NCBI GenBank assembly: GCA_036925085.1
Contig: JAUPFP010000093.1
Location: 437,001 to 501,000, forward strand
Reading direction: 5' to 3'
Source: Brachycybe producta
Lineage: Eukaryota; Arthropoda; Diplopoda; Playtdesmida; Andrognathidae
Length of the DNA stretch: 64,000 nt
This document shows, one piece after another, positions 3,978-51,703 of this stretch. The translations under genes and the position numbers were made by a program. The notes beneath the pieces are model-generated. The model saw nothing but the letters and a program-made list of their open reading frames with translations, was not told where the DNA came from and did not search any database. The stretch's first letter is position 1, and every line of letters begins with the position of its first letter.

Positions 3978-4126
3978 GTTATGATAATAACATGAACCAT
4001 GGTAATAATGGTGGTGTGTCCAGTTTGGATTGTCTTTCATTGATTGTTGAGAGCATCAGTCCAGCAACAGCTGGACTTCTCAATTCAGGAGGAGGAGGAG
4101 GAGGAGGAGGGTCATTTCAAGAGTGA
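3978..4126 (+). CDS. Probable C-terminal exon of a MyoD/Myf5-family myogenic regulatory factor (partial)
   Basis: An acceptor TTCTTTAG at 3970-3977 opens a 149-bp exon with intron phase 1. The readable peptide contains SSLDCLSLIVESIS. This closely resembles the conserved helix III motif near the C-terminus of vertebrate MyoD and Myf5 (S-S-L-D-C-L-S-x-I-V-x-x-I). It is followed by PATAGLLN, a run of Gly encoded by GGA repeats, and a stop at 4124. In vertebrate MRFs this motif sits at the start of the last exon, which fits. The bHLH domain and start codon are not seen between 1 and 3970 and would lie off the left edge. The tail after helix III is short, and the GGA run makes the frame beyond it fragile: another frame reads on as acidic sequence to 4236. 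The family call rests on one motif, supported by the neighbouring genes. Confidence 0.6.
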
Positions 4127-4457
4127 CCAATGTCCACTTGTGTCCAGTCAAACAAAAAACACCTCTGATGATGATGATGATGGTTCAAAAGTTATAAAGG
4201 TAGGAAAGGAACAAAAACAAAGACTAAAAGGAAACTAAAACCGATCAACAAATTTAATTTTATTTCTAATCTTAATTATCTTTTTTTTTAAATGAATATT
4301 AATTAATCTTGTCTTTATGTTATTATAACAGTTTATATAATTATTGTAAAAAAAATGGCTTTAATATTTGTTAATTGTTAATTGAGAAAGCCAAAAAAAA
4401 CACAACAAAACGTAGACTACATTTTTCTTGTGGTCTGAATTCCAATGTATTTTTTAT

Positions 4458-4463
4458 AATAAA
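4458..4463 (+). other. Poly(A) signal candidate for the MRF exon
   Basis: An AATAAA hexamer lies about 330 bp after the stop codon at 4126. It sits in AT-rich sequence with no competing gene, so 4127-4480 is probably 3' untranslated region. Confidence 0.35.
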
Positions 4464-4689
4464 CAATTTACAAATTCATAAAATTCAAAAAAAAAAAATA
4501 TGAAAATTTAAGAGATGAAATTATTCATTGGAGGGATTGAATGGAGGCTAGGAAGAATGCAAATTCAGAGAGAAAAAAATTTAGATTGAAATGGAGAATT
4601 ACATAAAGCCTATGATGGACCTAGCTGGGCCTGAAGAACTGGGCTGGCAGTTTGCTGGAAGAAAAAAAAAAGGCGTGGGCCAGGTAGGC

Positions 4690-5400
4690 TTTTTGGTCTT
4701 TATTGGTCTTTTGGGTCTTCTTTTCTTCATTGGTCTTTTGGACTTTGTGAGCCTGGTAAGCATTGTGGTCTTTATTGGTTTTTTGTACTTTGTGGGCCTC
4801 ATTGGGCCTGGTGGGCTTTGTGGTCTTTATTGGTCTTTTGGGGTTTTTTGGGTCTCCTTTTCTTTATTGGTTTTTTTGGACTTTGTGAGCCTGGTAAGCA
4901 TTGTGGTCCTTACTGTTTTTTTTGGACTTTGTGGGCCTCATTGGGCTTTGTGGTCTTTATTGGTCTTTTGGGGTTTTTGGGTCTCCTTTTCTTTATTGGT
5001 TTTTTGGACTTTGTGAGCCTGGTAAGCATTGTGGTCCTTACTGGTTTTTTGGACTTTGTGGGCCTCATTGGGCTTTGTGGGCCTCATTGTACCTGGCGGA
5101 CATTGTGGTCTTTATTGGTATTTTGAACTTTGTGGGCGTCATGGATCTGGTGAGCATTGTGGTCTTCATTTATCTTTTTGGATTTAGTTGGTCTTGTAGG
5201 ATTTATTCTTGAGGGCCCTCTGAGCCTCATGGGCCTGGTGTGCTTTGTTGGCTTCAGTGATATTTTGAACTTTCTTGGTTTTGATCGGTCTTTTGAGCTT
5301 CATAGGTCTAGTGTGGTTTTTTGCTTCGTCGATTTTTTATGCTTTGTTGGGTCGCTTGGACCTATTTATGGGTCTCTAGGAGCAGGGCTCACTTTATAAA
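4690..5400. repeat. Degenerate minisatellite, TTTGTGGGCCTCATTGGG-type units
   Basis: About 700 bp of irregular tandem units. Larger blocks of about 85-110 bp recur, containing GGACTTTGTGAGCCTGGTAAG and GTGGTCTTTATTGG. Overlapping hydrophobic open frames in all three forward frames are an effect of the repeat. Confidence 0.85.
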
Positions 5401-6465
5401 GCCTTATGTGGACTGAGCTTGTGGGCCTCGTAATTCCTTCTGTACAGAATGTTGGCCTCTCTAGTTTCTAAAATCTGTTAAAGCTCCTATCAGACTATCA
5501 ACTTTTGATGAAACTTTGATTCAATACAACTTGCAATGGTGACGTGCAACTTCTTTGTTTAATAGTGTGGATATGACGTGCAACTTGATAAAACTTTCTT
5601 TACAACTAATGTTGAGACTCAGTCTCATTGAGTTGCCTACATGTTCAACTTCTGAGAGACTTTTTTATGAAATTTACTGACAAACAACCAATCAGGCTTG
5701 TATGCCAGAAATGACATCAAAACTTGGAATGAATTTCCGGTTTATGAACTTCCTGTTAGGGGATCATAATGGCTTCCACAATGTGGACACAAACGGATGT
5801 TTTTGAAAACTTGATTGGCACTGAGGTTGTAATACTAGTTTCATGTGTGACATATACAAGTTTATTACAAACGTTCTAGTTGCAAAGTCACATCATAAGT
5901 TGCATTGCAAGTTGAATTGCATTGGAGGTTGCTTAGTGTGATAGAGGCTTTTAGAAAGTTAAGTTTGCTATTCTTGAATTCTGGCCTGAAATCCTTCATT
6001 TACATGTTTTAGCCTCTATGTGTGGGTGTGTATGTCAACACCTGATGAAGATCTTTTGAAGTCATTATCTTACATAAGGATTCATGTGTCCCCCTTTATA
6101 TGTCATACATGGATTTCATCACCTTTTAAGCTTAGCTTTAGAATTGTCACCAAATGTGATGACAGTTGTATTTTGGCCCCCTCCCCCCTTCCCTTTCTCC
6201 CCTTTTAACCCTCACTTCTATTTTGATGATGGAAATAAGGGACTAATTGAAAAAATGGCGGCTTTAAGAAGGGGGGAGGGTTAAGAGGGGGAGGGGGTCA
6301 AAAATGGTCTCCAGTGACTGTCCACTTGTGTCCAAACTACACACCAACAAGTGTTTCTGGTTCACATCATTCTTATTTACTAGAAAATTGATTTGAAAAG
6401 AAGAAAAAACACCCTCAAAAATAAAATGGCCACTCTTTTAAGGACCAAATTCAAGAAGTGAAACT
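5401..6465. other. Intergenic stretch without a recognised gene
   Basis: Less repetitive than its surroundings. Short open frames at 6020-6284 lack splice context or recognisable motifs. A C-rich/G-rich inverted pair lies around 6175-6300. No gene is supported. Confidence 0.4.
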
Positions 6466-7115
6466 TATCACTTGAACTTCATCTTGAAAAACTCCAAACA
6501 GGGTTTCAAGTTCAAACATAAATACCCTTGTTTATTTAAGTAAGGGTACTCAATTTTATGTGTGTTGGAACCTCTGTTCTGAGGTTTCAAGTTGAAGTTC
6601 AAGTGCTAAAGCTATAAGTCAAGAAAGAAACATAGCACTTGAACTTCAACTTGAACCCTCCAAACAGGGTTTAAAAATAGAAGAAAAAAACCTATTCAAA
6701 TATACTGAATAAAACAGGTTTTTTTCCATTTTGGAACCCTGTTTTGAGGTTTCAAGTTGAAGTTCAAGTGCTAAAACCGTAAGTCAAGAAATAAACATAG
6801 CACTTGAACTTCAACTTAAACCCTCCAAACAGAGTTTAAAAATAGAAGAAAAAAAACCTATTCAAATGTACTGAATAAAACAGGATTTTTTTTCCATTTT
6901 GGAACCCTGTTTGGAGGGTTCAAGTTGAAGTTCAAGTGCTAAAGCTATAAGTCAAGAAATAAACATAGCACTTGAACTTCAACTTCTTCAACCCTCTGAA
7001 CAGGGATTCAAGCACCAACGTAAAAAACTCCTGTTTAAGTACTGGGGTTTTATCCTGTTGGAACCTCTGTTCAGAGGGTACAAGTTGAAGTTCCAAGTGA
7101 CAAGTTTCCTTCGTG
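6466..7115. repeat. Tandem 167-bp units with internal inverted repeat
   Basis: The segment AAGTGCTAAAGCTATAAGTC recurs near 6602, 6767 and 6935. Each unit contains CACTTGAACTTCAACTTGAA and its complement around AACCCTCCAAACAGGGTT. Dispersed single copies of the same sequence occur at 13200-13510, 18960-19070, 42090-42250, 43255-43340, 44450-44560 and 61150-62230. Confidence 0.85.
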
Positions 7116-7212
7116 AACTTGTGCCGTAAGATGCTAAAAAAGTATAACTGACCATTGGTCATTTAGAACTGTTCTTCAGAGCGTTTAATTGGTGTTTAAT
7201 TTAAATTTTAAT

Positions 7213-7213
7213 A

Positions 7214-7285
<72 letters not shown>

Positions 7286-7396
7286 TCTGTCTCTCTCTCT
7301 CTTTCTTTCTCTCTCTCTCTTTCTTTCTCTCCTCTCTCTTTCTTTCTCTCTCCCTCTTTCTTTCTCTCTCTCTTTCTCTCTCTGTCTCTCTTTCTC

Positions 7397-7430
<34 letters not shown>

Positions 7431-7483
7431 GTCTCTCTTTCTCTCTCTCTCTGTCTCTCTTTCTCTCTCTCTCTCTCTTTCTT

Positions 7484-7514
<31 letters not shown>

Positions 7515-7579
7515 CTCTCTCTCTCTCTCTCTCTTTCTTTCTCTCTCTCTCTCTCTTTCTTTCTCTCTCTCTCTCTCTT

Positions 7580-7616
<37 letters not shown>
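7213..7616. repeat. (TC)n microsatellite, about 400 bp
   Basis: Nearly pure TC dinucleotide repeat with scattered TTTC interruptions. The long Leu/Ser frame on the plus strand and Arg/Glu frame on the minus strand come from the repeat. Confidence 0.95.
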
Positions 7617-7618
<2 letters not shown>

Positions 7619-7699
7619 AGATGAGACACTTTTTTAACTCTTTTGTTTTTTAATTAGAAATCTTCAATTAAATAAAGGGATTAATGGAGATTAACTTTT

Positions 7700-8350
7700 T
7701 CTCTTTCTATCTTTATTTATGCAAAATGCTAATGAGGATCAAATTGTTATGCAAATTAGATTTTATGGTGTTGATTAGGATAGGGTTATTTGTTATCTCA
7801 CTGCATCTAATTTATTATGAGATGGAGTGAGATAAAAAGAGAAAAGAGATAGAAACAAATAAAGAATAGATAGATAAAGGAGATATAAATTAGAAAGAGA
7901 TAGGTGAGATAGAATGCAGAGAGATAGATATAAAAGGGAAACTTGAGTTAAAAAGAGATAGAAACAAAATGGAAAAGAAAGATATATACAGTATTATTAT
8001 AAATGGAAAGTGAGATAGAGAAGTTCTATTAGAATGATATAGAAATATATTCATATAAAGACACAATATATATGAAATGAGATAGAACAAAGAGACAGAA
8101 ATAAGAAAGGGGAAATAGATGAGATAGAGAGTGAACACGGAGAGATAGATATAAATGGGAAGAAAAACAAGATAAAAAAGCATAGTGAGATAGAAAATTA
8201 CTATTATAATAATAGAAATATTTATAAATAAAATGAGATGGAACAGAGATAAAGAGAGATAGATTAGATAGAAAGAAATTGAACATGGAAAAATGAGATA
8301 TAAATGAAAAATTGAAATAGAAAGAGATAACTAATCAATAAAGAGATAGA

Positions 8351-8402
<52 letters not shown>

Positions 8403-8700
8403 TATAAGAGAGATTGGAAAGTCAGATAGAAACATTTCTGATATTAAATGAGATACGTGTAAATTAAGTTATATGGAAAGAGATAATTAATGAGATAAAG
8501 GTGAGGTGTTTCATAAAAATGAAACACCTAATGAGAGAATCAAAGAGATTAAGAGAGAGTGAGAGAGAGAGAAAGTGTGAGAGAGAGATAGAGAAAGTGT
8601 GAGAGAGATAGAAAGAGAGAGAGAGAGAGAATGAGAGAGAGAGAGATAGAAAGAGAGAGAGAATTAATACAGGGTGCTTCAAGAAAAAAAGGAACATTAT
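7700..8700. repeat. Purine-rich GATAGA/GAGA low-complexity region
   Basis: About 1 kb of GATAGAAA-, AGAGATAG- and (GA)n-type sequence, including a (GA)n run at 8355-8397. No gene is seen. Confidence 0.8.
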
Positions 8701-9290
8701 TTTCCAGGATATTCATGTTGATTAGGTGCGAACCTGAAGAAGAAGAAGAAAAAGAAGGAGGAGGAGGAGGAGGAGATTGTGGCGCCACCACACTGTATTT
8801 CACACGTGACCAATCACGTCTCACCTTATTTTGGTTGAGTGAAGAGATTATTACATTCATCTTTTTTCAATGTAAGCTAAATATATAAGAATATGCAAAT
8901 TTATTGGATATTTTTCATTCACATTTTTAGAAGAAGAAGAGAAGTTGTGGATGAAAAGAAGCAACAAAAAAAGTATTAAAAACTTGACGGGTAAAAATAA
9001 CAATATTTTTTTTGTCGGATCTCGGGTTTTTGTTTTTCATTTTAAACTATTTTTCATTTAAAAAAAAAGCATATAAACAGGAAGAGAGTGTCAATTTGCT
9101 ACAATTAACAAAATAGTTTAATTTAGAACAGGTAAAGTATGTAATTTTATTGTTCTTTTTATGAGCATTCTAGTTTTTTGGGAGGAGGGGGTACAAGTGA
9201 AATTCATGATTTTGATATTTTTTAAGAAACATCTTTTAAAGTGATTTTAAAGTTTAAACGATTCTCGAACTCTTGGTTATTCGATGTAAT
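8701..9290. other. AT-rich stretch without a recognised gene
   Basis: Contains GAAGAA/GGAGGA repeats near 8730-8775 and again near 8930. The short Glu/Gly-rich frame is compositional. I see no exon with supporting splice signals. Confidence 0.4.
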
Positions 9291-10310
9291 AACAAATTGA
9301 ATTTGTTTTAGAAACTAGAAGAGTAACTGTGTCACTTAAGGTGGTTTTAAAGTGTAATGAAGAATTTGACAGTGTTTTAGAAACTAGAAGGGGTAGTTCA
9401 ATCACTTAAGGATTATTACATGATGATATATTTCAAAATAAACTTTTTATGCAAGTTTAAAAATGACGCTAAAGTTCATTTTGAAAGATAATCAACATGA
9501 AGTGATCGAAGAACTTACCTTTCTAGTTTCTAAAACACTTTCAGTTTCGAACTTTTGACTTTTTTCTGTCTTTTAGAATCAAAATTACGAGAAATGTGAA
9601 TGTGTCTTACAAACTAGAAGAGTAGCTCTGGTTATTCGGTTTATGAAGAAATTAAATTTGTTTTAGAAACTAGAAGGGTAGTTCAATCACTTGCGAATGA
9701 TGATATCTTTCAAAATAAACGTTTTATATAAAGTCTGAAAATGGACCTAACTTTAAACAGACAATATTTTTTTTAAAAAATTTGTCTATAAAAAGTTTAT
9801 TTTGAAAGATAATCAACATGAAAATACCCTTAAGTGATTGAATTACCTTTCTAGTTTCTAAAACACTTTCTTTCAATTTCTTCTGATGGTTTCGAACTCT
9901 CTGACTCTTCTGTTTTTTTAGAATCAAAATGAGGAGAAACTTCAATGAGTCTTAGAAACTAGAAGAGTAACTTTGTCACTTAAGGCGGTTTTTAAAGTGT
10001 AATGAAAAGAAACTTGAAAGTGTTTTAGAAACTAGAAGGGTAACTCAATCACTTAAGGGTATTTTTCATGATTGATATCTTTTAAAATAAGCTTTTTTAT
10101 GTCAGTTTGAAAATGACACTCCTATAAAAAGTTTATTTTGAAAGATAACAATATGAAAATAGCCCTTAAGTGATTGAGCTACCCTTCTAGTTTCTAAAAC
10201 ACATTCATGTTTTTTTTTTGTATTTTTCACTTAAAAAGACAGAAAATAATCAAGAGTTCGAGAGGCGCGTTTACACTCGGTTGAAATCACTTTAAAAAGT
10301 AGAATTAAAT
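9291..10310. repeat. Cluster of family C fold-back elements
   Basis: At least two full inverted pairs occur here (about 9661-9866 and 10020-10202), with diverged single arms around 9310-9540. Each pair opens with TTTTAGAAACTAGAAGGGTA and closes with its complement. Inner segments near CTTTCAAAATAAACTTTTTAT also pair. Arms are about 75-80 bp. There is no coding capacity. Confidence 0.85.
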
Positions 10311-10350
10311 GTAATTTTCCTTGTTGTTTCGGTGGTCAAGGGACAGAGAA

Positions 10351-12430
10351 ATGGTGTTGGTGACCTTTGACCTGCACGTGGCATCGGCCGCACGTCTTTG
10401 CAGCCAATTCTTTCAACTGTTTTTGCTCTACATTTACCTGTATTCGGCCACAGGTAAAAATAAACTAGTGTTTTAGAAACTAGAAGGGTAACTGAATTCC
10501 TTAAAAGAAGTGTTCCTGTTGATACTCGTAAAAAAGGAACCTTTTTATGCAGAAATTGAAAGTGTTTTTAGAAACTAGAAGAGTAACTGAATCACAGCTA
10601 AAAATGGATATTTAAAAAAAGAGCTATAAGAAGAAATTCAAAGTGTTTTAGAAACTAGAAGAGTAACTGAATCACAGTTAAAAATGGATATTTAAAAAAA
10701 GAGCTAAAGGAAGACATTGAAAGTGTTTTTAGAAACTAGAAGAGTAACTGAATCACAACTAAAATGGATATTTAAAAATAGCTATAAGAAGAAATTGAAA
10801 GTGTTTTAGAAACTAGAAGAGTCACTTAATTTTTTTAAAAAGATGTTCCTGGTGATGTCTTTAAAAATGAACTTTTTATGGAGAAAATGAAAGGGTTTTA
10901 GAAACTAGAAGAGTCACATAATTCGTGAAATTCAAATTAGCATAAAATGTTCAACTTGAAAGATATCTTAAGTAATTTTGTTTTACTCGTCTAGTTTCTA
11001 AAACACATTTAATTTTCATTCTCAAATGTTGCTTTTCTGTAACTTACAGAATTACCCAGAATCCAATTTCAGTTGTTCTTTTGCATATTTTTTTTTTTTG
11101 CAAATGGTTTATTTTATAAAATGTCTCGCGTGTGTGTGTGTTTGTCATAGTGACGTCATCGTGTGCTCTCAGCTTTGATGATAATGTGATACCTGTCAGC
11201 GACACAGAGAGTCAGACAAATCACCACATGCAGGTGAGAGCGCCCTCTATCTGTCATTTATTAAAACATGTTTAAAGGAATTTTTAAAATGTGCATTTCA
11301 AACTAGAAGATTATATTTTTCACGATTATATTTTTAAAAATATCTAAATTTAAATAACTTAATTTTTTTCTTCTTCCAATTTTAATGTGAAACAATATAA
11401 ATTAATAATTTTGTTAGAAACTAGAAGAGTTGAAAAAACTATTAAGTATTTTCATTACAAGTATTTTTTTTTAAAATGAACGATTTATATAAGGTATTTT
11501 GTAAAATAACTAAATTTAAGGCTTATTATTTATGATTAAAATTGATCAACACTTAAGAAAAATTCAAAGTTTGTTAGAAACTAGAAGAGTTGTGTAATTA
11601 AAAGATATCTCATTATGGATATTTTTTTAAAATGAACTATTTATAGGGAAGTTTATAAAATAACACAATTGACTAATTTTAATTTCGAAAAATAAACTAA
11701 AAATCTTGAAAATGTCAACTTTTTAAAAGAAAAGAAAAATTCAAAGATTTTGATACAAACTAGAAGAGTAATTTAATAATTAAAAGTATTTTCATTACAA
11801 ATGTACTTTTATTTTTCAAAATGAACTATTTATCATATATAAATAGTTCATTTTGATGATAACAATATTTTTAAGGCATTTTAAATTGCTAAATTCATGT
11901 GAAAATCCACTGGAAACTTTTGTAGAAAAGTAGAAACTTCAAAATTTGTTATAAACTAGAATAGTTTAATAATCTTAATAAAATTATATTTTATTTTAAT
12001 TAAGTTTAACTTTTAATTTAATCTTGTTTTTTGAAAAATTAAATTTTTATAAAAACTAACGGTTGGGGGTTTATTTAAAAAGTTTATTATGAAAGATTTC
12101 AATGTTGACAAATAATTTTTATGCAAATTTTTTTAACTTTTCTAGTTTTTTATTTCTTGCACAAATGTATTTTGTTTGTTTTCATTATTTAGGATGCAAT
12201 TGAGTATTTCACATTTTTTGACGTTTGCGAAAGCCGAAGTGGTTTCGAGCGTCTTACAACCGGTGTCAACCCAGATTCGGAAGTCGTTCAGTTGCACCCT
12301 TCGACTTGGGTTTACACGACCACGTGCCGCCACGCAGGAAGCCCGTGTTCGGGTTATGGTAAATTAAAAGGTGGTGGGGGGTTTCAAGTTTCTCTTCATT
12401 CTGCATCTGCAGAGTAGAAGAGCCATTTTA

Positions 12431-12466
<36 letters not shown>

Positions 12467-12686
12467 GGGGGGGGGAGCTTCCTTTCTTGAATTTGGACCT
12501 CTTTTTTTTTTTTCTTTTTTTTTTCGTATAGGTGGCGCTCTCACTCTTTGCCGTCCAAAGAAATCTTGGGTTCAAGCTTACGGTAAGATAGAGGGCGACA
12601 CTTGGCAGTATCATTGGATAGCAGTAACAACGTCATGCACATGCGCAATGAAAGCATTTCCTTATTTGCCAACTAAACATCTTTGA
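10351..12686 (+). CDS. Neurotrophin-like secreted cystine-knot ligand (4 exons, 168 aa)
   Basis: Exons are 10351-10453, 11151-11233, 12193-12358 and 12532-12686, with GT-AG borders and matching phases (1, 0, 1). The start ATG follows an in-frame stop at 10312. Residues 1-34 include a hydrophobic signal-like stretch (FFQLFLLYIYLYSA). The cystine knot is in exons 3 and 4, with cysteines at residues 74, 107, 114, 124, 153 and 155. Their order and the closing CxC match neurotrophins. The segment from the fourth cysteine (CRPKKSWVQAY) to W..HWIAVTTSCTC parallels CRTxxxxVxAL..WxFIRIDTACVC of the NGF family. Spacing from cysteine 4 to 5 is 29 residues, against 28 in NGF. Such ligands form secreted dimers that signal through Trk/p75-type receptors. 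The propeptide is very short and no dibasic processing site stands out. Spätzle, Trunk or PTTH-like knots are the alternative. A further 5' exon cannot be excluded. Confidence 0.8.
10455..10925. repeat. Intronic tandem array of family C arms, about 90-bp period
   Basis: It lies in intron 1 of the ligand gene. The segment GAAACTAGAAGAGTAACTGA recurs about every 90 bp, with GGATATTTAAAAA between copies. It is one of several separate arrays built on the same arm sequence. Confidence 0.8.
11280..12170. repeat. Intronic family C arms in the ligand gene (intron 2)
   Basis: Repeated, diverged arms with TTAGAAACTAGAAGAGTT occur near 11405, 11575 and 11755, with AT-rich sequence between. There is a short perfect hairpin near 11825-11855. 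No additional exon is seen. Confidence 0.65.
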
Positions 12687-12689
12687 AAT

Positions 12690-14990
12690 TTTAACAACAT
12701 TTTTCATGATTCACTTTTAAAAATGATCTTCTTCTTCTTCTCTTTAAAATGCTAATGAAAACATCAAAAAATAATGCTTGTAAATCTTTCATTTTGCACA
12801 ATTCTTCTTCTTCTTTGTCTTTTTTTTATTCAAATTTATTTTTTGTAAATTGCTTTCTATTAATTGTTAATTAGAAAATTAGAACAAGAAAAAATCTGAC
12901 TAACCTTTTAATTTTCTGGTTATTCTGTTTTTAAAGAAAAAACTAGAAAGTGTTTTAGAAACTAGAAGGGTAGTTCAATCACTTAAGTCTGTTTTCATAT
13001 TGATATCTTTTAAAATAAACTTTTTTTGTCAGTTTTTAAAATGACCCAACTTTTAATTAGGTAATATTTTTTTTAATTGTTGTCTATAAAAAAAAAGTTT
13101 ATTTTGAAAGATAATCGACATGAAAATACCCCGTAAGTGATTCAGCTTGCCCTTTCTAGTTTTTAAAACACTTTCAATTCATAGAGGATTCTGTGAATTT
13201 CGAACTTCAACTTTGAACTCTCGAAACCAAGATTCACAAACAGAAAAATCCTGTTCAAGTGTAACTGAATAAAATAGGGATTTTCTATGTTTGGAACCCT
13301 GTTCTGAGGGTTCCAGTTAAACTTCAATTGAATAATTCCAACTTTATTATTGGAACTTTTAACACTTGAACTTCAGCTTGAACTCTCTGTGAACAGGGTT
13401 CCACAACATAGAAAAGCTTTTTTTTTTTTCAAAAAGGTACTTAATAAAATGGGGTTTTTTCTAAGTTGGAACCCTGTTTTGAGGGTTCAAGTGAAAAATT
13501 TTAATTCGACAGAAAAAAGATTAATTATTTAAGCACAAATTACATTTGTTGAATATTGTTTGTTTAGATGTTTATCTTTAATTGTGTTTATCTTTGATCG
13601 CGGTTTAATTTCTTGAGTAGATTTGCTCAAAAAAACAAAAAAATCTCTTTAATGTCTCAAAATGAATTAAATAATTCCACTTTTTAAGTGTGTCTCACAA
13701 CAATTTAGAAACTAGAAGAGTAAATGAAAGGCAATGGGATTCATCTGTTTTTTAAAAAAAAATTAAAAGGAGAAAAAAACTAGAAATGTTTTTTTATAAA
13801 CTAGAAGGGTAGCTCAAGCCCTCAAGGGTAATTTATTGTTGATATCTTTCAAAATAAGCTTTTTATTTCAATTTTGAAAAGTAGCCAACTTTAAACCAGA
13901 CAATATTTTTTTTAAATTTTTGTCTATAAAAAGTTCATTTTGAACGATATATCAACATGAAAGTGGACTTGGAAAGTCAACTGGAAAAATCTCCTTTTTT
14001 TATAGAAAACTTCTCAAGAAAAACTTGAAAATGTTTTAGAAACTAGAAGGGTAAATGAAAGGCAATGGGATTCATCTGTTTAAAAAAAATAAAGGAGAAA
14101 AAAAACTAGAAATGTTTTTTTAGAAACTAGAGGGGTAGCTCAAGCCCTCAAGGGTAATTTATTATTGATATCTTTCAAAATAAGCTTTTAATTTCAATTT
14201 TGAAAAGTGGCCAACTTTAAACCAAACAATATTTTTTTAAAAAATGTTTGTCTATAAAAAGTTCATTTTGAACGATATCAACATGAAAGTGGACTTGAAA
14301 AGTCAACTGGAAAAATCACCTTTTTTTATAGAAAATTTCTCAAAAAAAAAACTTGAAAATGTTTTAGAAACTAGAAAGGGTAGTTCAATCACTTAAGGGT
14401 CATATTTTCATGTGGATATCTTTTAAAATAAACTTTTTATAGTGAAAATTCGAAGAAAAAAAATATATTTGCTTAAAGTTGGCTTAGTTTCCAACTCACA
14501 TAAAGAACTTAATATATGGACCAATTAAGTAAAAATTGAAATGGCTCTAGAAACTAGAAGAGCAAGTGGATCACTTAAGAAGAAATCGAAAGAGTTCCAT
14601 AGACTAGAAGAGCATTTTCATGTTGATATATTTTAAAATCAGCTTTTTTTTTGTCAGTTTGAGAAAATGACACAATTTTAAACAGATATTTTTTTTAATG
14701 TTTGCCTATAAAATGTTTATTTTGAACGATATCAACGTAACAATACTATTAAGTGTAATATGCTACCCATTCTAGTTTCTAAAATACTTTCAAATTTCTC
14801 TTTAGTGTAAAACATCTTAATATTGAAATATGAAATACTGATATTGATATTGCAGACCATTAATCAAATTTTGCTGCACTGCATCATGGGTAAAATGTGA
14901 GCGTTTTTTTTTAAGATGACAAAAATTTCAATATAAATTTTAAATGTGGATTTTTTTTTGTTGAATATTAAAATGTGTGCTAGCAGTGAT
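12690..14990. repeat. Family C fold-backs and a 330-bp tandem duplication
   Basis: A full inverted pair lies at 12951-13171. Around 13700-14350 a 330-bp unit is present twice in tandem, shown by GTAAATGAAAGGCAATGGGA near 13722 and 14052. Further arms lie to 14790. Part of the CTTGAACTTC-type repeat is at 13200-13510. No gene is seen between the ligand gene and 15 kb. Confidence 0.75.
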
Positions 14991-16055: not shown

Positions 16056-16149
16056 TTCTGTTTCTCTAATAAGGCCACCCCCCTTCCTGATATACATGTA
16101 TATATTATCTCCTGTATTAAGTGAATCTTGCTTTCTATGATTGTATGCT

Positions 16150-16164: not shown

Positions 16165-16169
16165 CGCGT

Positions 16170-17753: not shown

Positions 17754-32941
<15,188 letters not shown>

Positions 32942-41798: not shown

Positions 41799-41882
<84 letters not shown>
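41799..41882. repeat. (TA)n microsatellite
   Basis: About 80 bp of TA repeats. It is followed by ACAGGGTGTTTCACTATGAA, a sequence of the type often found at the end of invertebrate mobile elements. Confidence 0.9.
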
Positions 41883-41884
<2 letters not shown>

Positions 41885-42625: not shown

Positions 42626-42629
42626 TGAG

Positions 42630-43095
42630 ATAAAGTTTGTGACGTCAGAGGGGTTGATAAAAAAAATTTAATATTTGATTATTTTGTCTTAGAAAAAAGA
42701 GCTCGGATTTTTAAGCAAAGCTAAATCTTTCTTAATTTGTGGCCCAAAGTGCCAATTAGGAAGTGTTCGTCATTAGAGCATATGCAATTATGTTTTTTTT
42801 TTCTAATCAAAATGGCTGCTTAGAGGCTAGATGTCTGGGTACTAACTTACTATCAGTTCTCAACTAGAGTTCTAGCATCAAACTAGCCTTTTTGATTAGC
42901 AAAAGCATAATCACAACTTGCTCTACTGATGATCACAATATGTACTTGGGCCACAAATTGAGAAACAGTTGCTTGATTTTGCATAAAAATCCGAGCTTCT
43001 AGTAAGCAACCCTTTTTTATTTGACAAAATGACAATCTTAAATTTTAGATAAACCCCTCTGACGTCAAAAGCTTCGTCTGACAATGAGGTAACCA
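42630..43095. repeat. Fold-back element with CCTCTGACGTCA ends
   Basis: Left GTTTGTGACGTCAGAGGGGT and right ACCCCTCTGACGTCAAAAGC are inverted. Inner arms carry AATTTGTGGCCCAAAGTGCC and its counterpart. A partial copy lies at 29545-29700 in rapsyn intron 2. Confidence 0.8.
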
Positions 43096-43129
43096 CACTT
43101 TAGGTTATCTTGAGGGGGTCATTTAAAAA

Positions 43130-45530
43130 GTTCAGTTATAATAAGTTATAATAATATCGATATTTTTATTTTAATTAATTTCAATTTATGTTTCCTAATG
43201 TAGATGCATTAATTAGCTTCTGTTGGATGTCCAATTTTTCATAAAGAAGGAAACTGGGAACTTGAACTTCGACTTTTGAACCCTCTGAGCTGGGTTTCAG
43301 TATAGAAAAGGGGCTCTGTGTTTGAACCCTGTTATAAGAGCTAAATTTTAGCCAATGAAAAGATTTGATTTTGTTCGTATGTTTATTTGCTTTAAATTTT
43401 TTTTATTTAACATGACGTCGTGCATTTGAAGACACATTTTGTTGCATAGTGGTGCACTAATATGGCGTTGTTTCACTAAATGTTATACTGGTAAGACGCC
43501 ATATTACATTTTTCTCATCTGTCATCATGATCATCGCGCAGCGCGCTATGTTTCAAAACATTAACTAGAACAGGTTAGCTAATGCCTTTTAACTTTTTTT
43601 CTATTGAATATAGTTCGTGAACTTTCTTGTCCTGTTGTTTCAAGATGACTGTCTATGTAAGTTGTTGTTTTGTGCGGTTTTTAAAAAAAGTTTCGCGTAA
43701 TTTTAGCACTTTATCGATGAAAAATGTCGCTAATAATGAAGTTCAAGTGAGGGTTAAGATTAAGTGTTAATTTTAGCGCCTTAGATGGGCTGCAAATGTT
43801 AATTTAACATGACGTCACACATTCGAAGTCATTTTGTTATATGGTGGTGTACTAATATGGCGTGTTTTTAGGCAAAATAGCATATTGGCAAGACGCCATA
43901 TTTACATCTTTCTCATGGTTATGGCGTCGCACGCTATGCTTCAGAATGTTAATTCGGACAGGTTAGCGAGTGCCGTCGACGTTTTCTTTTTTCATCGCGT
44001 GTGAACTTTTTACCCCATTTTCAAGATGGCTGTCGGTGTAGCTTGTTTTTTTTGTGCGGTTTATTAGTGAAGTTTCGCGGCGTCTTTGCACTTTATCGAT
44101 GAAAAATGTAGCTAACAGGGAAGTTTAAGTGATAATTTCAGGGCAAGTGTTAGTTTTAGGGAAGTATTTAAGCTATTCCAAGCGTTTTAACCGGTTCAAA
44201 GTAAGTTGTTAACGACACTTATCATTGAAGTCTATGAGCGCGGCGCGTTTTTTCACGTTTCTTTTGTTCGATTAACTGTTTTGTTTTCTTAAAGGGGGTG
44301 GCCTGGGGTGGGTCACTTAAAAAGTTTGGTTGTCAAATATAATAATATCGATATTTTTATTTTAATTAATTTCAATTTATGTTTCCTAATGTAGATGCAT
44401 TAGCCTCTGTTTTACGTCCAAATTAGGCTTAAAGACGAAAACTTGGCAGTTGAATTTCGACTTTTAAACCCTCTCAGCAGGGTTTCAGCATAGAAAAGTC
44501 CTTGATCAAGGAGTACTCAATAAATCTGGGGTTTTCTGTGTTGGAACCCTGTTACGAGAGCTAAATTTGAACCAATGAAAAGATTTGATTTTGTTTGTAT
44601 GTTTATTTTCTTTAATTTTTTATTTAACATGACGTCGTGCATTTGAAGACTTATTTTGTTGCATAGTGGTGCACAAACATGGCGTTGTTTGACTCAATGT
44701 CATATTAGTAAGACGCCATATTACTACATCTTTTCCATCTATTATTATGGTGATCGCGCAGCGCGTTATACTTCAAAACATTAACTAGAACAGGGTATCT
44801 AATGTCTTTTGACTTATTTTCTACCGATTTATAGTTCGTGAACTTTCTTGTCCTCTTGTTTCAAGTTGACTGTCAATGACTCAATGTAAGTTGTTGTTTT
44901 GTGTGGTTTTTTAAAAAAAAAGTTTTGCGTATTTTTCTGTGTTTTGTCGATGAAAAATGTAACTGATAATGAAGTTCCAAGTGATAGTTACGGGTAAGTT
45001 TTAGTTTTAGCGCACAATGATGGGGTCTGCAAATGTTAATTTAACATGACGTCACACATTCGAAGACATTTTGTGATATAGTGGTGCACTAATATGGCGG
45101 GGTTTTTAGGCTAAATAAGCATATTAGCAAGACGCCATATTTACATCTTTCTCCCTCTTTATCATGATTATCGCGCCGCACGCTATGCTTCAGAATGTTA
45201 GCTCGAACAGGTTAGCGAATGCCTTCGACACATTTCTTATTCATAGTTTGTGAACTTTATTGTCTTATTTTCAAGATGTCTGTCATTGTAACTTGGTTTT
45301 GTTGTTGTTTTGTGCGGTTTATTAGTGACGTTTCGCGTTTTTTAACACTTTATCGATGAAAAATGTAGCTAGAAGGGAAGTTAAAGCGATAATTCAGGGC
45401 AAAAGTTAGTTTTAGAGAAGTATTTCAGCCATTTCGAAGCGTTTTAACCGGTTCAAAGTAAGTTGTTAACGACACTTATCATTGTAGTCTATGAGCGCGC
45501 CGCGTTTTTTACGTTTATTTTGTTTGGTTA
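43130..45530. repeat. 1.2-kb tandem duplication with internal half-repeats
   Basis: Two copies start near 43140 and 44335, each with ATATCGATATTTTTATTTTA then TTTCCTAATGTAGATGCATT. Within each copy a 390-bp segment recurs, marked by TTTAACATGACGTC, TATGGCG and CAAGATG.CTGTC, giving four related segments (near 43410, 43805, 44625 and 45040). The four segments differ by many substitutions. No conserved open frame is visible. Confidence 0.8.
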
Positions 45531-45994
45531 ACTCTTTATTTGTTTAATAATGGTTAGAGGGTTGTATTCACAATGTTAGAAGTCAGTTTTGGTCATGTTT
45601 TGTACTTTATTAAATGTATTTTGACCTCAAACGGATGAAAATCTGTTATATTATCAACGAGCCGGCGGCTTCTCAATGTTAAGTAATGGATGACGTCATT
45701 CTCTATGGTTTGTTTCCCGCTCGAATATGTTGATCGTCACTTGCATTTGACTGACTAAACTCTCATTGTTGTGTTCTTATTTATCAGTCGTTTAATTGGT
45801 CGGGCGCCATTTTGTGTCTTATTTAGCCTTTGATGTTAGTATTGAAGGACACACGTTTTTCTTTTATATTATTTCCAATTTTCCATAGATTGCAATGCAT
45901 GGGGGACGACATAGAAGAAAATCAACTACGAGATTCATAAAGATTCATCGAGATTCACACGATTCACCCTGCATTAATATGCTTGCAGTTAGTT

Positions 45995-46297
45995 GGCTTA
46001 TACCTTGCATACACACATGAGTTAAATGAATTCAAATTAAATGTGTTTTGGTGAATTATACGGAATCCAGTTAAGGACATGAACACCAAATAAAAATCGA
46101 CTTTTATTATTAATATTTTAAAATTTGAAATACTAAATCAATATTTTGTAAATTGTTTATATTATTATATTTCAGTATTAACTCAATATTTTCAGATTAA
46201 TTAACTGAATAAATTGAATTCGACGACATATTGTTTGTTTTGTCCTTCACAGGGCTCTGTAGAACACGTTTATTATTTAAATGCATTTAAATTATGA
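45995..46297. repeat. Dispersed 300-bp repeat, family F (single arm)
   Basis: Nearly the same sequence as the two inverted arms at 62935-63668, including GAATTATACGGAATCCAGTT and CCTTCACAGGGCTCTGTAGA. Confidence 0.85.
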
Positions 46298-46436
46298 GGT
46301 GTGTGTCTGTATTAGGTATTAGGACAACATCCCAAAGACATTTTTTTGTTGCAAAACATTGATACCAAAATCAGCCTGGTTCAAACTCACAAATTAACAA
46401 GTTATAAAAACAAACTAAATTTCTACTCATAAAACA

Positions 46437-46442
46437 TTTATT
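46437..46442 (-). other. Poly(A) signal candidate for the Rab exchange factor gene
   Basis: AATAAA on the minus strand, about 270 bp beyond the stop codon. Confidence 0.35.
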
Positions 46443-46710
46443 TATATTAGTAAAATTTACACGATATAATATATATTAACTTATATAATGGAACTATATA
46501 CAAATACGACAAAAATGTAAAATATAATTTCATACACTGAATTGCAACAACAACAAAACTGGTATCTATAATTGTGTTTGTTGTGGACCCAAATAGTCCT
46601 TAAATTCGTGACTTAGGAAGACGAGAGAGTCTTGTGTGTGATCAAAACTATACGGAAGAGAGAAACAGAAAGAGTGGTCAAGGTTTTTTCTTGAATTTTG
46701 GCACTAAGGG

Positions 46711-49700
46711 TCAATTGAAGCCCAGTTTAGCCAGGGCCATCTTCTTTCTCAGTTGTAGAATCTCGCCGTAAACTTCATGTACTGTGAAAAGAAAGAAAAA
46801 AATAGGGTAGAAATTAAGAAGAAAAAAAGGGGGCGTGTCTCATAACAAAGGGGGAGTGACTTCGAGGTGAACCAGAGGGCGTGTACCCCATAAAAGGGGG
46901 TGGAGCTTAAGGTACACCCGAAAAAGGGGAAGTTGGTAAGAGAACGCGCAATATATACGTGGCACATAAAAAGCGATCGAAATACCAATACAAATGTGGA
47001 TTACACAAAATGGGAGTGGCTTAGTTGCCAGTGAGCATTGTTGGCCAAAAATCGAAATTACTTTAAGCCTTTTGTCGCTAACCACTTTTGGTTGTTGAGT
47101 TCGACTTCATTTTGCAGTCAAAGTTGACCACTAAAAAGTGGCTCGAAAAGGGGGGGGGAGGGTCTTAAGTTGACCCGTGTGTAATACAGAAAAAAAAGGG
47201 AACTGAGCTAGTCGAAAGTGGGCGTGGTTTAGGGTATGGGGTGTGGTTTAGTGTGGGACCAGTTGGACAATATAGGAAGGAAGTGTCTTAGTTGGCAATG
47301 GGTGTTGGTCTATGAGATTTATGACAAAGGGATGTTGCATAACATTGGCCATTTATTATTAGTGGGCGTGGTCGCGTGCAATGGAGGGGGCGTGGCTTGA
47401 CGTAGGCCATTAGTATGAAGTGGTTTAAAGAAGGTATAGTTTGTGGCATACAGAGTAAAGGAAATGGTGTGTGGGGGCGTTGCTATAGTGAAAAAGGGGC
47501 GGAGTCTGGATGGAAGGGCGGGGTCGATATAAAGGGGGCGTGGTCTTACTACTGTTCTTGACGAGTCCTTGTTGAATATAACGTAAATAAGATAGAAAAT
47601 CGCAAGTGGCTGCAATCTGTTGAATAAAATAAGAGAGAAAAAAATGATTTTGGACATCGCTTCTCGATTGATAGTAACTTAACTGACCACTGTCCACTCT
47701 TACCCTATTTCGACACAGTTGCGAAATGTAATACCATTGTTCTGAATCTCCGAGTTTCATTCTGTATTTGCAAATACGAGGTGTTTCCAACAAGGAGCAA
47801 CGTCTTTCGAATAACACGAGGAAGAAGAAGAAAAAAAAAGACACTTGACCATTTTCTTCTTGACCAAAATGGACATTGTCCATCGACTCACAAAATCCTT
47901 ACTTTGGAAATGGATTTTTGCCGCTGACCGTTTCGATCACGATTGAGTTGTCTTCAATACTTTTCTGAACGTTGACTGAAAGCTGTTTTGAATGAAAAAC
48001 GAGCAAATAAAATGACCAATAGGAAGTGACCAATGGGAAGTGACCGAATGTGTGTCCATACTTCCTTGTTGCTGAAATTGAGGCACGGAAGAATGTCCTC
48101 TAGATAAACACGGTCCAGAAACGGATGAGTTTTATCCAAGTTCGGACTTTTTCTCCACGATACGAATTCGTGATGATAAAGTGGATCCACCTGGCGGACA
48201 AGAAAGACAGCATAATTTACATATTATGTAAATTAAAAAGGAAAACAAAATCGAGAATCTGTGTTTCAGAAACAACATTAAAATTTTTGAAATGTTTTTT
48301 TATGAAACTTAAGAGTAAATGGACCTTAAGGTCCCTCTGCCATAGGCCAACAGGCTGCTTGGGGAGTATTTTTTGTAATTCTAAATGAACCACTTAAGAA
48401 CTTGAAGAGTAAATGAACCACTTAACAAGAAATTGAAAGAGCTTTAGAAACTAGAAGAGTAAATGGACCACTTAACAAGAAATTGAAAGAGCTTTAGAAA
48501 CTAGAAGAGTAAATGGACTACTTAAAAAGAAACTGAAAGTTTTTAGAAACTAGAAGAGTAAATGAATCACTTAAAAAGAAACTGAAAGAGTTTTTAGAAA
48601 CTAGAAGAGTAAATGGACCACTTAACAAGAAATTGAAAGAGCTTTAGAAACTAGAAGAGTAAATGGACCACTTAACAAGAAACTGAAAGAGTTTTTAGAA
48701 ACTAGAAGAGTAAATGGACCACTTAACAAGAAACTGAAAGTTTTTAGAAACTAGAAGAGTAAATGGACCACTTAACAAGAAATTGAAAGAGCTTTAGAAA
48801 CTAGAAGAGTAAATGGACCACTTAACAAGAAACTGAAAGAGTTTTTAGAAACTAGAAGAGTAAATGAATCACTTAAAAAGAAACTGAAAGTTTTTAGAAA
48901 CTAGAAGAGTAAATGAATCACTTAAAAAGAAATTGAAAGAGTTTTTAGAAACTAGAAGAGTAAATGGACCACTTAACAAGAAATTGAAAGGGTTTTAGAA
49001 ACTAGAAAAGTAAATAAATCAGGATTTTCCACGTTCAGATTTCATCAAAATAAACTTTTTCTGGTTTTCTTCTTCTGGAAATTCTCGAAATGTTTTGAGA
49101 TGAAAAAAAATTTGAATCCTAAGATTCAAAGCCCGTATTCGAAAACGTTGCTTAAAATAAAGTTAAGCTTTAACAAACGCAATACGAAACTATAACCAGG
49201 CTATGGAGAGTTTTTAAGTTTAACTTTGGCTTAAGTAATGTTTTAGAATAATGGCCCGTAAGTTTTTCCGTTGGAGTTTTACTTCGTATTCGTCTCTGAG
49301 AAATGGTTCCGTAGTTTGAAATTGCATTTGAGGAAGATTCGGATTTGGTTCCTTAACCGGTGATCCTGGTGGAGTCGTATCTCTACCGTATTTTAGATTA
49401 TTGTGACTCGGTGATCGTTTGTGACCGCGAAACAGATTCATTCCATTGTTCATATTTCCACTCCCTCCTCCTCCACCGAATCCGTTCTCTTTCGGTCTCT
49501 GTTCGGCCGCTTTTAGTTGCGGATGAAGATGTCGATTCGGCATACTCGGAGTTGACGTAATGACCAAGGTTTTTAGAGCCTGAACTTCAGCCTGAAGAAC
49601 TTCGATCTATGGAAGGAATTTAGATCGATGGATTCACTCTGGATTCAAACAAACAAAAAATAACCTTCATGTTGGCTTCCGTTAGAGATTTCTCGGCTCC

Positions 49701-51703
49701 GTCTCTTTTCACTTTGGCTTCACGGACCATTTTATGAGCTTCCTAGAAAAAAACAAGAGAAATAATTTACGGAATGCCTCGGAGGGGGGGGGCCCTCTCG
49801 AACTCTTTGATTATTTCTGTCCTTCAGATGCAAAATGAAGAGAAACTTGAATGTGTTTTAGAAACTAGAAGGGATATTTTCATGTTCGATATCTTTCAAA
49901 ATAAACTTTTTATGTGATTTTTTAAAAAGTTTATTTTAAAAGATATCAACATGAAAATAACCTCTTTGAGTGATTGAGCTTTTATACGCTTCTAGTTTCT
50001 AAAACACTTTCTAGTTTCTCTCTTCTTGAAAGACAGGACAGGAATAATCAGGAGTTTGAAAATCATGTTGTTCGTAAAAACCATCTTAACCTGAAAGAGG
50101 CTAGCGGTCAGATCTTCTAGTTCGGCTCCGACTTCATCTCGTAGACAACGAAGTCTTCCGACTTCTTCGTCTTTCTGTTTTAACTCCTGTAAAATAAAAA
50201 AAAAATAAAAAAAAGGGGTTGAGGTTTTTTTTTCCCGAAAAAGGAAGTGTTGAATCCCCTGGAAAACAAAAAAAAATCTCGATTCTCGAACCTCGTGCGC
50301 TTTCTTAAGCTCTTCTTGAAGTCTTGCGAACGGATACGCCGCTTCAGTTTTTAGTTCGCAAGTTACGTTCGCAGCGCTGTTACTGTTGAATTCGTGAACA
50401 TCTTCTTTTGGAAACTGTCTGAAAAAAGGAAGACACCCCACCCCCCAAAAAAAATATTATTGATTATCGATTCTGATTTACAGTGAAAATCGGATAACAC
50501 GAAATATATTTTCGGTCGGGGTGTTCTTTAGAAAAGCATAAAATTTCTTTTAACACCAAAATTCAATTAACACAAAGAAATATTTTTCATCTTTCTGTCC
50601 ATTTCGTTTTAAATAGTTTCCACTGTAAATACAGTGAAAAACCGTTTAACAAGAAAAAATCGGATAAGACGAAATATATTTTCAGTTCGGTTCATTAGAA
50701 AAGCATGAAGAAGAGAAAAACAATTTCTTAGAACACGAAAACGGATAACAGAAAATATCTTTTCGGGTCTGGTCCTTTTAAAATAGTTGTAAGCTTTTCT
50801 TTTAACACGAAAAAATATTCCTGATCGGATCAGGAATATTTTTTCGTGTTAAAAGAAATGTTTACAACTATTTTAAAAGGATCAGGCTGATCCTTTTCAT
50901 TTTGTCTTAAACCGTTTAACACAAAAACGGATAACACGAAATGTTATCAGTTCAAGTTCTTTGGAATAGCATAAAGATTTCTTTTAACACGAAAAAATAT
51001 TCAGGGTCCCATTTTAGTTGGGTTTTAAAATTCATTTTTAACACAAAAAATATTCTGGTCTTTCATTTCGTGTTAAAACGTTTCGACTTTATACAGTTAA
51101 AACCCGTTTAACACGAAAACGGATAACACAAAATATGGAATTTCGTAGAATATAGCATTTTTTTAACACGAAATTCGTTTAACACGAATAAATATCTGTC
51201 CCTTTCATATTTTCGTGTTATATTTTCATCGAGAACGGTTAAGTTGACCTATTGTGTTGACAACCACCAGATGTCGCTGGTCCATTCAGTTGCAAAACAG
51301 CTTCGGGGCTTCCAGGCGTGCTCGCTTTCGAAGACCGTTCGTGACCGTTGTCCGAGTTACAATTAGGTACGAGATTCGTTTCTTTCGTGGGGTTTCGATC
51401 GTCCTGATGAGAAGTTCCATTTACGGTGGCCCATTTGGTCTCTTCGGACTTTCCATTATCTGTCGATACATTACGTTGAATTGCAGATGGACAGTCCAGA
51501 GTAGGAGGAGTAGGAGGAGAAGAAGATGGTGAACTGGACACTTGGACATTGCAATCTTCACTGCCCACTGGATCTTCTCTTTGGTGTCCATTAAAATTGG
51601 TTGTTGGCGATATTTCTTCTTCCGATTCCTTTTGATGATGATGATGATGTTGATGTTGGTTGTTGGAAGTGCCGTCATGGTCAGTTGTGGTCATCACTTC
51701 CAT
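46711..51703 (-). CDS. RAB3IP: Rabin8/GRAB-type Rab guanine nucleotide exchange factor (10 exons, 508 aa)
   Basis: Exons in transcript order are 51703-51249, 50418-50292, 50186-50091, 49742-49665, 49606-49283, 48190-48062, 47982-47903, 47803-47704, 47616-47550 and 46781-46711. All borders are GT-AG and all phases match. Rabin8 and its paralogue RAB3IL1 activate Rab8, and also bind Rab3A and Rab11, in vesicle transport and ciliogenesis. Residues 1-152 are low-complexity, with a His run and a Ser/Pro-rich part. Residues about 180-275 form the Sec2 coiled coil that carries exchange activity: [40 protein letters not shown] and EAHKMVREA are nearly identical to the vertebrate proteins. The C-terminal region has [43 protein letters not shown] and [12 protein letters not shown], again close to vertebrates. 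The exon A start codon lies five bases after an acceptor, so an untranslated 5' exon lies upstream. A single pre-duplication gene is likely, so RAB3IP versus RAB3IL1 is not decided. Confidence 0.95.
48410..49015. repeat. Tandem array of family C arms, about 50-bp period
   Basis: Twelve copies of TTTAGAAACTAGAAGAGTAA followed by ATGGACCACTTAACAAGAAA or ATGAATCACTTAAAAAG. The array is in the intron before the HPFLDRVY exon of the Rab exchange factor gene. Two unit types alternate irregularly, so it grew in steps. Confidence 0.9.
49128..49256. repeat. Short dispersed repeat overlapping the end of a Rabin8 intron
   Basis: Shares GTTGCTTAAAATAAAGTT and GAGTTTTTAAGTTTA with 63250-63375. Ends near GGGCC..ATTC. 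It sits about 30 bp beyond the donor of the 49606-49283 exon. Confidence 0.6.
49853..50007. repeat. Family C fold-back element in a Rabin8 intron
   Basis: Inverted pair between two Sec2-domain exons. Left TTTTAGAAACTAGAAGGGAT, right ACGCTTCTAGTTTCTAAAAC. Confidence 0.85.
50470..51240. repeat. Repeats of TTTAACACGAAA and its inverse in the first Rabin8 coding intron
   Basis: GGATAACACGAAATAT, CCGTTTAACACGAAAA and the complement TTTTCGTGTTAAAAG recur about fifteen times in both orientations over 770 bp. One perfect hairpin lies at about 50775-50880. The copies end close to the donor of the first coding exon. Confidence 0.8.

What the first reader, a model, noticed from the sequence alone, without database searches (positions are those of the whole stretch)
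3978..51703. MRF, neurotrophin-like, rapsyn and Rabin8 genes in one 48-kb stretch, in the same order as on human chromosome 11
Seen: a MyoD-type helix III exon, a neurotrophin-like ligand, rapsyn and a Rabin8-type gene lie in that order. Known: human chromosome 11 carries MYOD1, BDNF, RAPSN and RAB3IL1 in this order over tens of megabases, and chromosome 12 carries NTF3, RAB3IP and MYF5/MYF6. Inferred: the window keeps a tight ancestral cluster that predates the vertebrate genome duplications, later spread out and split between paralogous chromosomes. It brings muscle fate, neurotrophic signal and synapse scaffold together, so shared regulation is conceivable. The linkage also supports the two weaker gene calls.
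Basis: partly seen in the sequence, partly recalled or inferred. Interest (0 to 1): 0.93.

Follow-up and report, generated by a model that had tools for sequence, protein, structure and literature searches.

The report
Ancient muscle-and-synapse gene neighbourhood
In an invertebrate of the arthropod lineage, a master muscle gene, a nerve-growth-factor-like gene and several synapse genes sit side by side, and their human counterparts appear to share one chromosome, so the linkage may go back to early animals; the matching order is no stronger than chance.

Summary
The four gene calls hold up, the ligand less firmly. The window is G000:C93:437001-501000 of a 295-Mb genome. The helix III exon belongs to an MRF gene: the genome's only myogenic basic-domain match lies 18 kb to the left on the same strand. 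Rapsyn and Rabin8 are clear. The ligand is six-cysteine and neurotrophin-like: NGF is its only Pfam match, but below the cut-off, and a genome-wide NGF search did not list it, so I do not file it as a neurotrophin. The flanks add SYT1 and a SYT12-like gene. Spaetzle matches and mitochondrial order point to an ecdysozoan, not a chordate. Linkage with the human 1/11/12/19 paralogon may therefore date to the protostome-deuterostome split; amphioxus and C. elegans reports agree. The matching order has p = 1/12 for four genes and vanishes with the flanking genes. Whether the packing is ancestral, or reflects shared regulation, is untested. Most likely this is slow decay of an ancestral linkage group.

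The parts
3978..4126 (+). Last coding exon of the MRF (MyoD-family) gene, with helix III (VSSLDCLSLIVESIS); the bHLH exon is outside the window at G000:C93:419041-419199, 18 kb to the left
   Evidence: Pfam Myf5 E 2.4e-4, 22.2 bits, cut-off 23; only Myf5-family match in the genome at E<=10; PF01586 once in the genome at E<=0.001, same contig and strand; acceptor and stop
12193..12358 (+). Neurotrophin-like ligand, exon with Cys 1-3 of the knot
   Evidence: ag acceptor and gt donor; no Pfam match alone; own-genome protein search at E<=10 finds only this gene
12532..12686 (+). Neurotrophin-like ligand, last exon with Cys 4-6 and stop
   Evidence: Pfam NGF E 0.0074 for this exon's frame, E 0.0012 and 19.4 bits for the joined protein, cut-off 27; best solved-structure matches are NT-3, E 0.065
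17754..32940 (+). Rapsyn gene (N-terminal and TPR exon from 17754; by eye a further exon about 29764-29900, a RING exon about 31100-31234 and the last coding exon about 32786-32940)
   Evidence: Rapsyn_N E 5.6e-29 and TPR matches, RING matches under cut-off, no Pfam match for the 29764 piece; only Rapsyn_N match in genome at E<=0.001; end read
47428..51703 (-). Rabin8/RAB3IL1-type gene, in several exons (exact 3' end of coding not fixed)
   Evidence: Sec2p E 2.1e-8, RAB3A-like_C E 4.7e-37 on joined exon pieces; Rab-3A-interacting protein E 3.3e-10, GRAB E 2.8e-6; exon pieces

Best explanation
The window is a piece of an ancient chromosome, the linkage group whose four vertebrate copies are parts of human chromosomes 1, 11, 12 and 19, preserved in an ecdysozoan. 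Along about 138 kb it carries, in order, a SYT12-like gene, MRF, a neurotrophin-like ligand, rapsyn, Rabin8 and SYT1. The genes stay linked because exchange between chromosomes is slow, while order within the chromosome shuffles. Six named neighbours in 138 kb would be ordinary spacing in a genome of this size, so no special force is needed. Shown: the genes, their order, strands and distances, and that the MRF basic domain, helix III and Rapsyn_N each have one match in this genome. Inferred: that the linkage is inherited from the bilaterian ancestor. Not shown: that the close packing is ancestral or functional.
For: Genes and order. Each of the five neighbours that I assigned to a human family (neurotrophin-like, rapsyn, Rabin8, SYT1, and SYT12 by recall) has a member on human chromosome 11, by recall. 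A rough model with recalled gene fractions and family sizes gives 3e-5 for chromosome 11 and 3e-4 summed over the three MRF chromosomes. PMC7530620 (passages): MRFs lie on human 1, 11 and 12, with 19 as ghost locus; the amphioxus MRF scaffold is enriched for human 11 and 12 orthologues and maps to ancestral group #14, later #2. PMC3280201 (passages): the neurotrophin paralogon maps to proto-chromosomes 13 and 14, and the single-exon amphioxus neurotrophin is on B. floridae scaffold V2_138. PMC7530620 lists B. floridae scaffold 138 among those with excess orthologues to the B. lanceolatum MRF scaffold. PMC2823689 (passages): the four SYT1-group regions share ancestry. C. elegans strain lists put hlh-1 (MRF) and snt-1 (SYT1) both on chromosome II (PMC3315469; PMC7606450).
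Against: Only 195 kb of one 524-kb contig was read, and six families were named after the fact; no systematic domain scan of the flanks was made, and parts of the reading-frame lists were cut. LIN7 is on C1 and troponin on C32, not on C93; contigs are not chromosomes, so this is weak. In PMC7530620 the amphioxus MRF scaffold has no significant tie to human 1 and a marginal one to 19. In PMC3280201 amphioxus lin7 is on another scaffold. Human positions are mostly recalled. The amphioxus step joins scaffold numbers from two papers and assumes the same V2 numbering. SYT12 could not be told from other synaptotagmins with the structures held; the best match is SYT1. A RERG/RASL-like GTPase exon next to SYT12 was not assigned to a human locus. 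One of the five partners, the ligand, is of open membership.
Confidence: 0.75

Rival explanations
1. One reading: a tight cluster of these genes already existed in the bilaterian ancestor, was kept intact here, and was later spread out in vertebrates.
For: The six named genes span 138 kb with gaps of 5-32 kb, and few other coding-like segments stand out between them in a codon-usage scan. Four of them agree in order with human chromosome 11.
Against: The order agreement is 1 in 12 by chance and is lost with the flanking synaptotagmins. In vertebrates the genes are tens of megabases apart (recalled). LIN7 and troponin are elsewhere.
Confidence: 0.25
2. The neighbours are held together by shared regulation, a neuromuscular regulatory block: MRF enhancers or insulators spread over neighbours and selection resists breaks.
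For: MRF, rapsyn, SYT1 and neurotrophins act in muscle or at synapses (established knowledge). The MRF gene has about 21 kb between its two known exons that could hold regulatory DNA.
Against: No expression, chromatin or conserved non-coding data were available. The functional theme was noticed after the fact. THAP-like frames between Rabin8 and SYT1 and a reverse-transcriptase-like frame beyond SYT1 were seen by eye.
Confidence: 0.07
3. The ligand is not a neurotrophin orthologue but a diverged Spaetzle-type or other cystine-knot factor, so only MRF, rapsyn and Rabin8 of the reader's four carry the linkage argument.
For: It is under the NGF cut-off, and the genome-wide NGF search at E<=10 listed only a fragment on C7, not this gene. 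Its Cys3-Cys4 gap of 9 equals that of one Spaetzle of this genome (L031), not the 11 of NT-3. The neurotrophin motif quoted in PMC2772990 is not met. The C7 fragment fits that motif's spacing better.
Against: Pfam reports NGF and no Spaetzle for it at E<=10, while two Spaetzle pieces of this genome score 34.7 and 45.3 bits with Spaetzle. Of 6 solved-structure matches at E<=10, four are NT-3 or NT-4 and two are viral proteases; none is a Spaetzle. It has no intron after Cys2, unlike the two Spaetzles read across that point (L032, L035). It lacks the adjacent cysteines of L030, L031 and L033, but L032 and L035 lack them too, so that is weak.
Confidence: 0.3
4. The agreement with human chromosome 11 is coincidence.
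For: The families have up to four human members each, and chromosomes 11, 12, 1 and 19 together hold over a quarter of human genes (recalled).
Against: Amphioxus and worm reports agree.
Confidence: 0.05

Closest known systems
Ancestral chordate linkage group #2 of Srivastava 2008 (earlier #14 of Putnam 2008), as cited in PMC7530620; human 1/11/12/19 paralogon with MYOG, MYOD, MYF5/6
   Same: MRF with neighbours whose human counterparts lie on 11 and 12 (passages)
   Different: Described for chordates; here the neighbours are within 138 kb in an ecdysozoan. Rapsyn is not named in that paper's main text (0 occurrences); Rabin8 was not looked for in it
Neurotrophin - LIN7 - KCNA - glycoprotein hormone tetra-paralogon (PMC3280201)
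   Same: Neurotrophin in a set of human regions that includes 1, 11, 12 and 19 (passages)
   Different: That set also takes in other chromosomes (3, 6, 10, 22, X); LIN7 was not found on this contig; KCNA was not searched
SYT1/SYT2/SYT5/SYT8 four-fold synteny (PMC2823689)
   Same: A SYT1-type gene on the same stretch
   Different: Its main text has no word beginning Myf or TNN (figures not held); troponin is on C32 here
Arthropod neurotrophins of Daphnia and ticks beside Spaetzle genes (PMC2772990)
   Same: A six-cysteine, NGF-profile ligand split by an intron, in a genome that also has Spaetzles
   Different: Consensus motif and NGF cut-off not met; signal peptide and propeptide exons not found

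Membership tests
Myogenic regulatory factor (MyoD family) | Myogenic basic domain plus HLH | tested here: met
   Basic 44.8 bits (cut-off 25), HLH 49.2 bits (cut-off 20.7); only Basic match in genome at E<=0.001
Myogenic regulatory factor (MyoD family) | C-terminal helix III in the same gene | tested here: inconclusive
   Helix III exon about 21 kb downstream, same strand, only match at E<=10, 22.2 bits against cut-off 23; donor and acceptor phases differ, so a linking exon is missing
Neurotrophin (NGF family) | Six-cysteine knot ending in C-x-C | tested here: met
   Gaps 32, 6, 9, 28, 1; disulphide pairing not tested
Neurotrophin (NGF family) | Pfam NGF curated cut-off of 27 bits | tested here: not met
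   19.4 bits, E 0.0012, still the only family reported at E<=10; not listed in the genome-wide NGF search
[quoted passage not shown]
   Sequence read: PCSGYGGALTLC
Neurotrophin (NGF family) | Signal peptide, propeptide and phylogenetic place among neurotrophins | not testable with these tools
   No upstream exon was recognised by eye; no invertebrate neurotrophin sequences held
Spaetzle | Pfam Spaetzle match | tested here: not met
   None reported at E<=10; two other pieces of this genome score 34.7 and 45.3 bits
Rapsyn | MGQ N-terminus with Rapsyn_N, and TPRs | tested here: met
   Rapsyn_N 100.5 bits (cut-off 23), TPR_12 50.6 bits (cut-off 30.1); one genome match
Rapsyn | C-terminal RING | tested here: inconclusive
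   RING families match the 30971-31234 frame below their cut-offs; the rest of the finger is probably in the next exon, not scored together
Rabin8 / RAB3IL1 exchange factor | Sec2 coiled coil and Rabin8-like C-terminal domain | tested here: met
   (joined exon pieces)
Synaptotagmin 1 | TM segment and two C2 domains closest to SYT1 | tested here: met
   Two C2 pieces: SYT1 E 1.1e-36 against SYT7 3.4e-19; TM and further C2 pieces at 511586-521139 seen by eye
Synaptotagmin 12 | Closest to SYT12 | tested here: inconclusive
   C2 domains confirmed, no SYT12 structure listed; the name rests on recall of human SYT12
Ancestral linkage group of human 1/11/12/19 | Orthologues linked in several phyla | tested here: inconclusive
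   Literature only: amphioxus MRF-NT, worm MRF-SYT1

The most novel reading that the evidence does not exclude
A neuromuscular gene neighbourhood (SYT12-like, MRF, neurotrophin-like ligand, rapsyn, Rabin8, SYT1) was tightly packed in the bilaterian ancestor and is kept together in some lineages by shared regulation, so that muscle identity, its trophic signal and synapse parts were once one genomic block.
Probability: 0.07. Interest if true: 0.9.

Novelty: new member of a known kind. Interest (0 to 1): 0.5.

Why it matters
If the linkage is inherited, the MRF and neurotrophin paralogons of vertebrates come from one neighbourhood at least as old as the bilaterian ancestor and not from later fusion. 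The position would also give an independent argument for the orthology of fast-evolving invertebrate neurotrophins, whose sequence alone is weak. It makes a long-standing question (what keeps old neighbourhoods together) testable with named genes.

Tried and rejected
Chordate origin: rejected, because the genome has 14 Spaetzle pieces at about nine places, 11 marked over the cut-off, and a mitochondrial block K-D-ATP8-ATP6-COX3-G-ND3-A-R-N-S-E. The A-R-N-S-E part is in the sea-spider table shown in PMC2194727 (passages); that the rest is arthropod ground pattern is recalled. After E the order departs from the ground pattern (ND6 follows). tRNA-Leu is not between COX1 and COX2, unlike Pancrustacea (rule). 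The species was not found.

Order conservation as evidence: rejected. LIN7 and troponin as further linked genes: not found on C93. Trk kinase motif: exact pattern, no match on either strand, uninformative because an intron or a changed residue would hide it. C7 fragment as a second neurotrophin: no further exon recognised in 11 kb read, no Pfam match for the 40-residue piece; left open. Papers on this cluster: searches with neurotrophin/rapsyn/MyoD/synteny (15 of 15 listed), paralogon/NTF3/BDNF/MYF5/MYOD1 (15 of 60 listed) and neurotrophin/rapsyn/microsynteny/protostome (1 listed) showed none that describes it, as far as titles and abstract starts tell. Worm rapsyn position: not found in the papers seen.
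Full report
WHAT WAS CHECKED. The window is C93:437001-501000 of an unnamed 295.3-Mb genome in 442 contigs; C93 is 523,709 bases long. I read C93:329001-523709 (and the window). Flanking genes were found with a codon-usage scan and by eye in reading-frame lists, parts of which were cut; there was no systematic domain scan.

MRF. Pfam Myf5 matches it at E 2.4e-4, just under its cut-off. In the whole genome nothing else matches that family at E<=10, though its own genome-wide E-value is only 0.136. The missing bHLH exon exists: PF01586 has one match in the genome at E<=0.001, C93:419041-419199 on the same strand, 18 kb left of the window. Its frame scores over the cut-offs for Basic and HLH. One loose end: the obvious donor of exon 1 is phase 0 and the helix III acceptor is phase 1. 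A small exon in the roughly 21 kb between them is probably missing from my model.

LIGAND. Exons 12193-12358 and 12532-12686 join across a gt-ag intron. The 106-residue product has six cysteines with gaps 32, 6, 9, 28, 1. Pfam gives NGF as the only family (E 0.0012, 19.4 bits, cut-off 27). Of 6 solved-structure matches at E<=10, three are NT-3 (best E 0.065), one is NT-4 (4.2) and two are viral proteases. A search with the ligand itself at E<=10 finds only its own two exons. Against it: the cut-off and the published neurotrophin motif are not met. The genome-wide NGF search at E<=10, which scores exon by exon, did not list it and listed only a fragment on C7. Its Cys3-Cys4 gap equals that of one Spaetzle of this genome. 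For it: no Spaetzle match is reported, although two Spaetzle pieces of this genome score 34.7 and 45.3 bits. The two Spaetzles read across Cys2 have an intron just after it (L032, L035), which this gene lacks. I call it neurotrophin-like and leave membership open.

RAPSYN AND RABIN8. Rapsyn_N E 5.6e-29 with TPRs, and a RING-like piece under the cut-offs; one Rapsyn_N match in the genome at E<=0.001; end at about 32940. Rabin8 on the minus strand: Sec2p E 2.1e-8, Rabin8-like C-terminal domain E 4.7e-37, best solved match Rab-3A-interacting protein.

FLANKS. Left: a SYT12-like gene at C93:383118-386986 (-) and a RERG/RASL-like GTPase exon at 376764-377216; the SYT12 name rests on recall, and its best solved match is SYT1. 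Right: a SYT1 gene at 511586-521139 (-), two pieces of which match SYT1 at E 1.1e-36 and the others by eye. Between Rabin8 and SYT1 lie THAP-like reading frames, and beyond SYT1 a reverse-transcriptase-like frame (named by eye). From SYT12-like to SYT1 is 138 kb.

WHICH ANIMAL. The mitochondrial contig C442 (15,359 bases) reads well under code 5; its order was read from reading frames (by eye) and ARAGORN tRNAs. It keeps K-D-ATP8-ATP6-COX3-G-ND3-A-R-N-S-E. The A-R-N-S-E part is in the sea-spider table of PMC2194727 (passages); the rest of the arthropod ground pattern is recalled. There is no tRNA-Leu between COX1 and COX2, unlike Pancrustacea. Beyond E the order departs from the ground pattern. 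Spaetzle matches are many: 14 pieces, 11 marked over the cut-off. I infer an ecdysozoan outside Pancrustacea; the species is unknown. PMC2772990 (passages and one section) reports neurotrophins beside Spaetzles in Daphnia and ticks, so such a pair is not new.

IS THE LINKAGE OLD? Human positions are recalled: SYT8, MYOD1, BDNF, RAPSN, RAB3IL1 and SYT12 all on chromosome 11. This is a rough, after-the-fact figure. Order adds nothing: for four genes 2 of 24 permutations are as concordant, for five 98 of 120, for six 518 of 720. Reports agree with old linkage. The amphioxus MRF scaffold is enriched for human 11 and 12 orthologues, but not significantly for 1 and only marginally for 19 (PMC7530620). 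The amphioxus single-exon neurotrophin is on B. floridae V2_138, while amphioxus lin7 is elsewhere (PMC3280201). Scaffold 138 is in the list of scaffolds with excess orthologues to the lancelet MRF scaffold; joining these two papers is my own step. The SYT1-group regions of vertebrates share ancestry (PMC2823689, passages). In C. elegans hlh-1 and snt-1 are both on chromosome II (PMC3315469; PMC7606450; strain lists). That rpy-1, the rapsyn homologue, is there too is recalled and was not confirmed. Results that do not extend the group: LIN7 is on C1 and troponin on C32.

HOW IT WORKS. Nothing here needs a mechanism beyond slow exchange between chromosomes. Six named genes in 138 kb of a genome of this size is ordinary spacing if the animal has some 15,000-20,000 genes (assumed, not counted). 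The functional theme of muscle and synapse is striking, but it was noticed after the fact and no regulatory evidence was available. I rate inherited linkage at 0.75, a tight ancestral block at 0.25 and shared regulation at 0.07.

VERDICT.

Noticed in passing
G000:C7:5841487-5841606 (L010, L034): Terminal-exon-like frame with C-x10-C-KGTD-x7-C, close to the neurotrophin motif spacing and ending CDCG-stop; the only match of the genome-wide NGF search (26.4 bits with one TAG read through, under the cut-off) but no Pfam match alone. Possible second, more canonical neurotrophin.
   Followed up: partly
mitochondrial contig G000:C442, 4633-5012 and 10733-11110: 380-bp inverted duplicate, 96.6% identical, probably two control regions that bracket the segment with the rRNA space, ND4L, ND4 and ND5, which lies on the other strand than in the sea-spider table.
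   Followed up: partly
G000:C1:12697416-12698753 and C17: COX1 matches outside the mitochondrial contig, probably nuclear copies, one almost full length.
   Followed up: no
G000:C24, C4, C21, C8: About nine Spaetzle places; the two read across Cys2 (L032, L035) have an intron just after it.
   Followed up: partly
C93:504276-505953 and 522408-522943 (right of the window): THAP-like reading frames and a non-LTR reverse-transcriptase-like frame near the contig end, named by eye.
   Followed up: no
window 7188-7653, 19959-20195, 28656-29214, 53313-54120: Long low-complexity tandem stretches, seen as repetitive reading frames.
   Followed up: no
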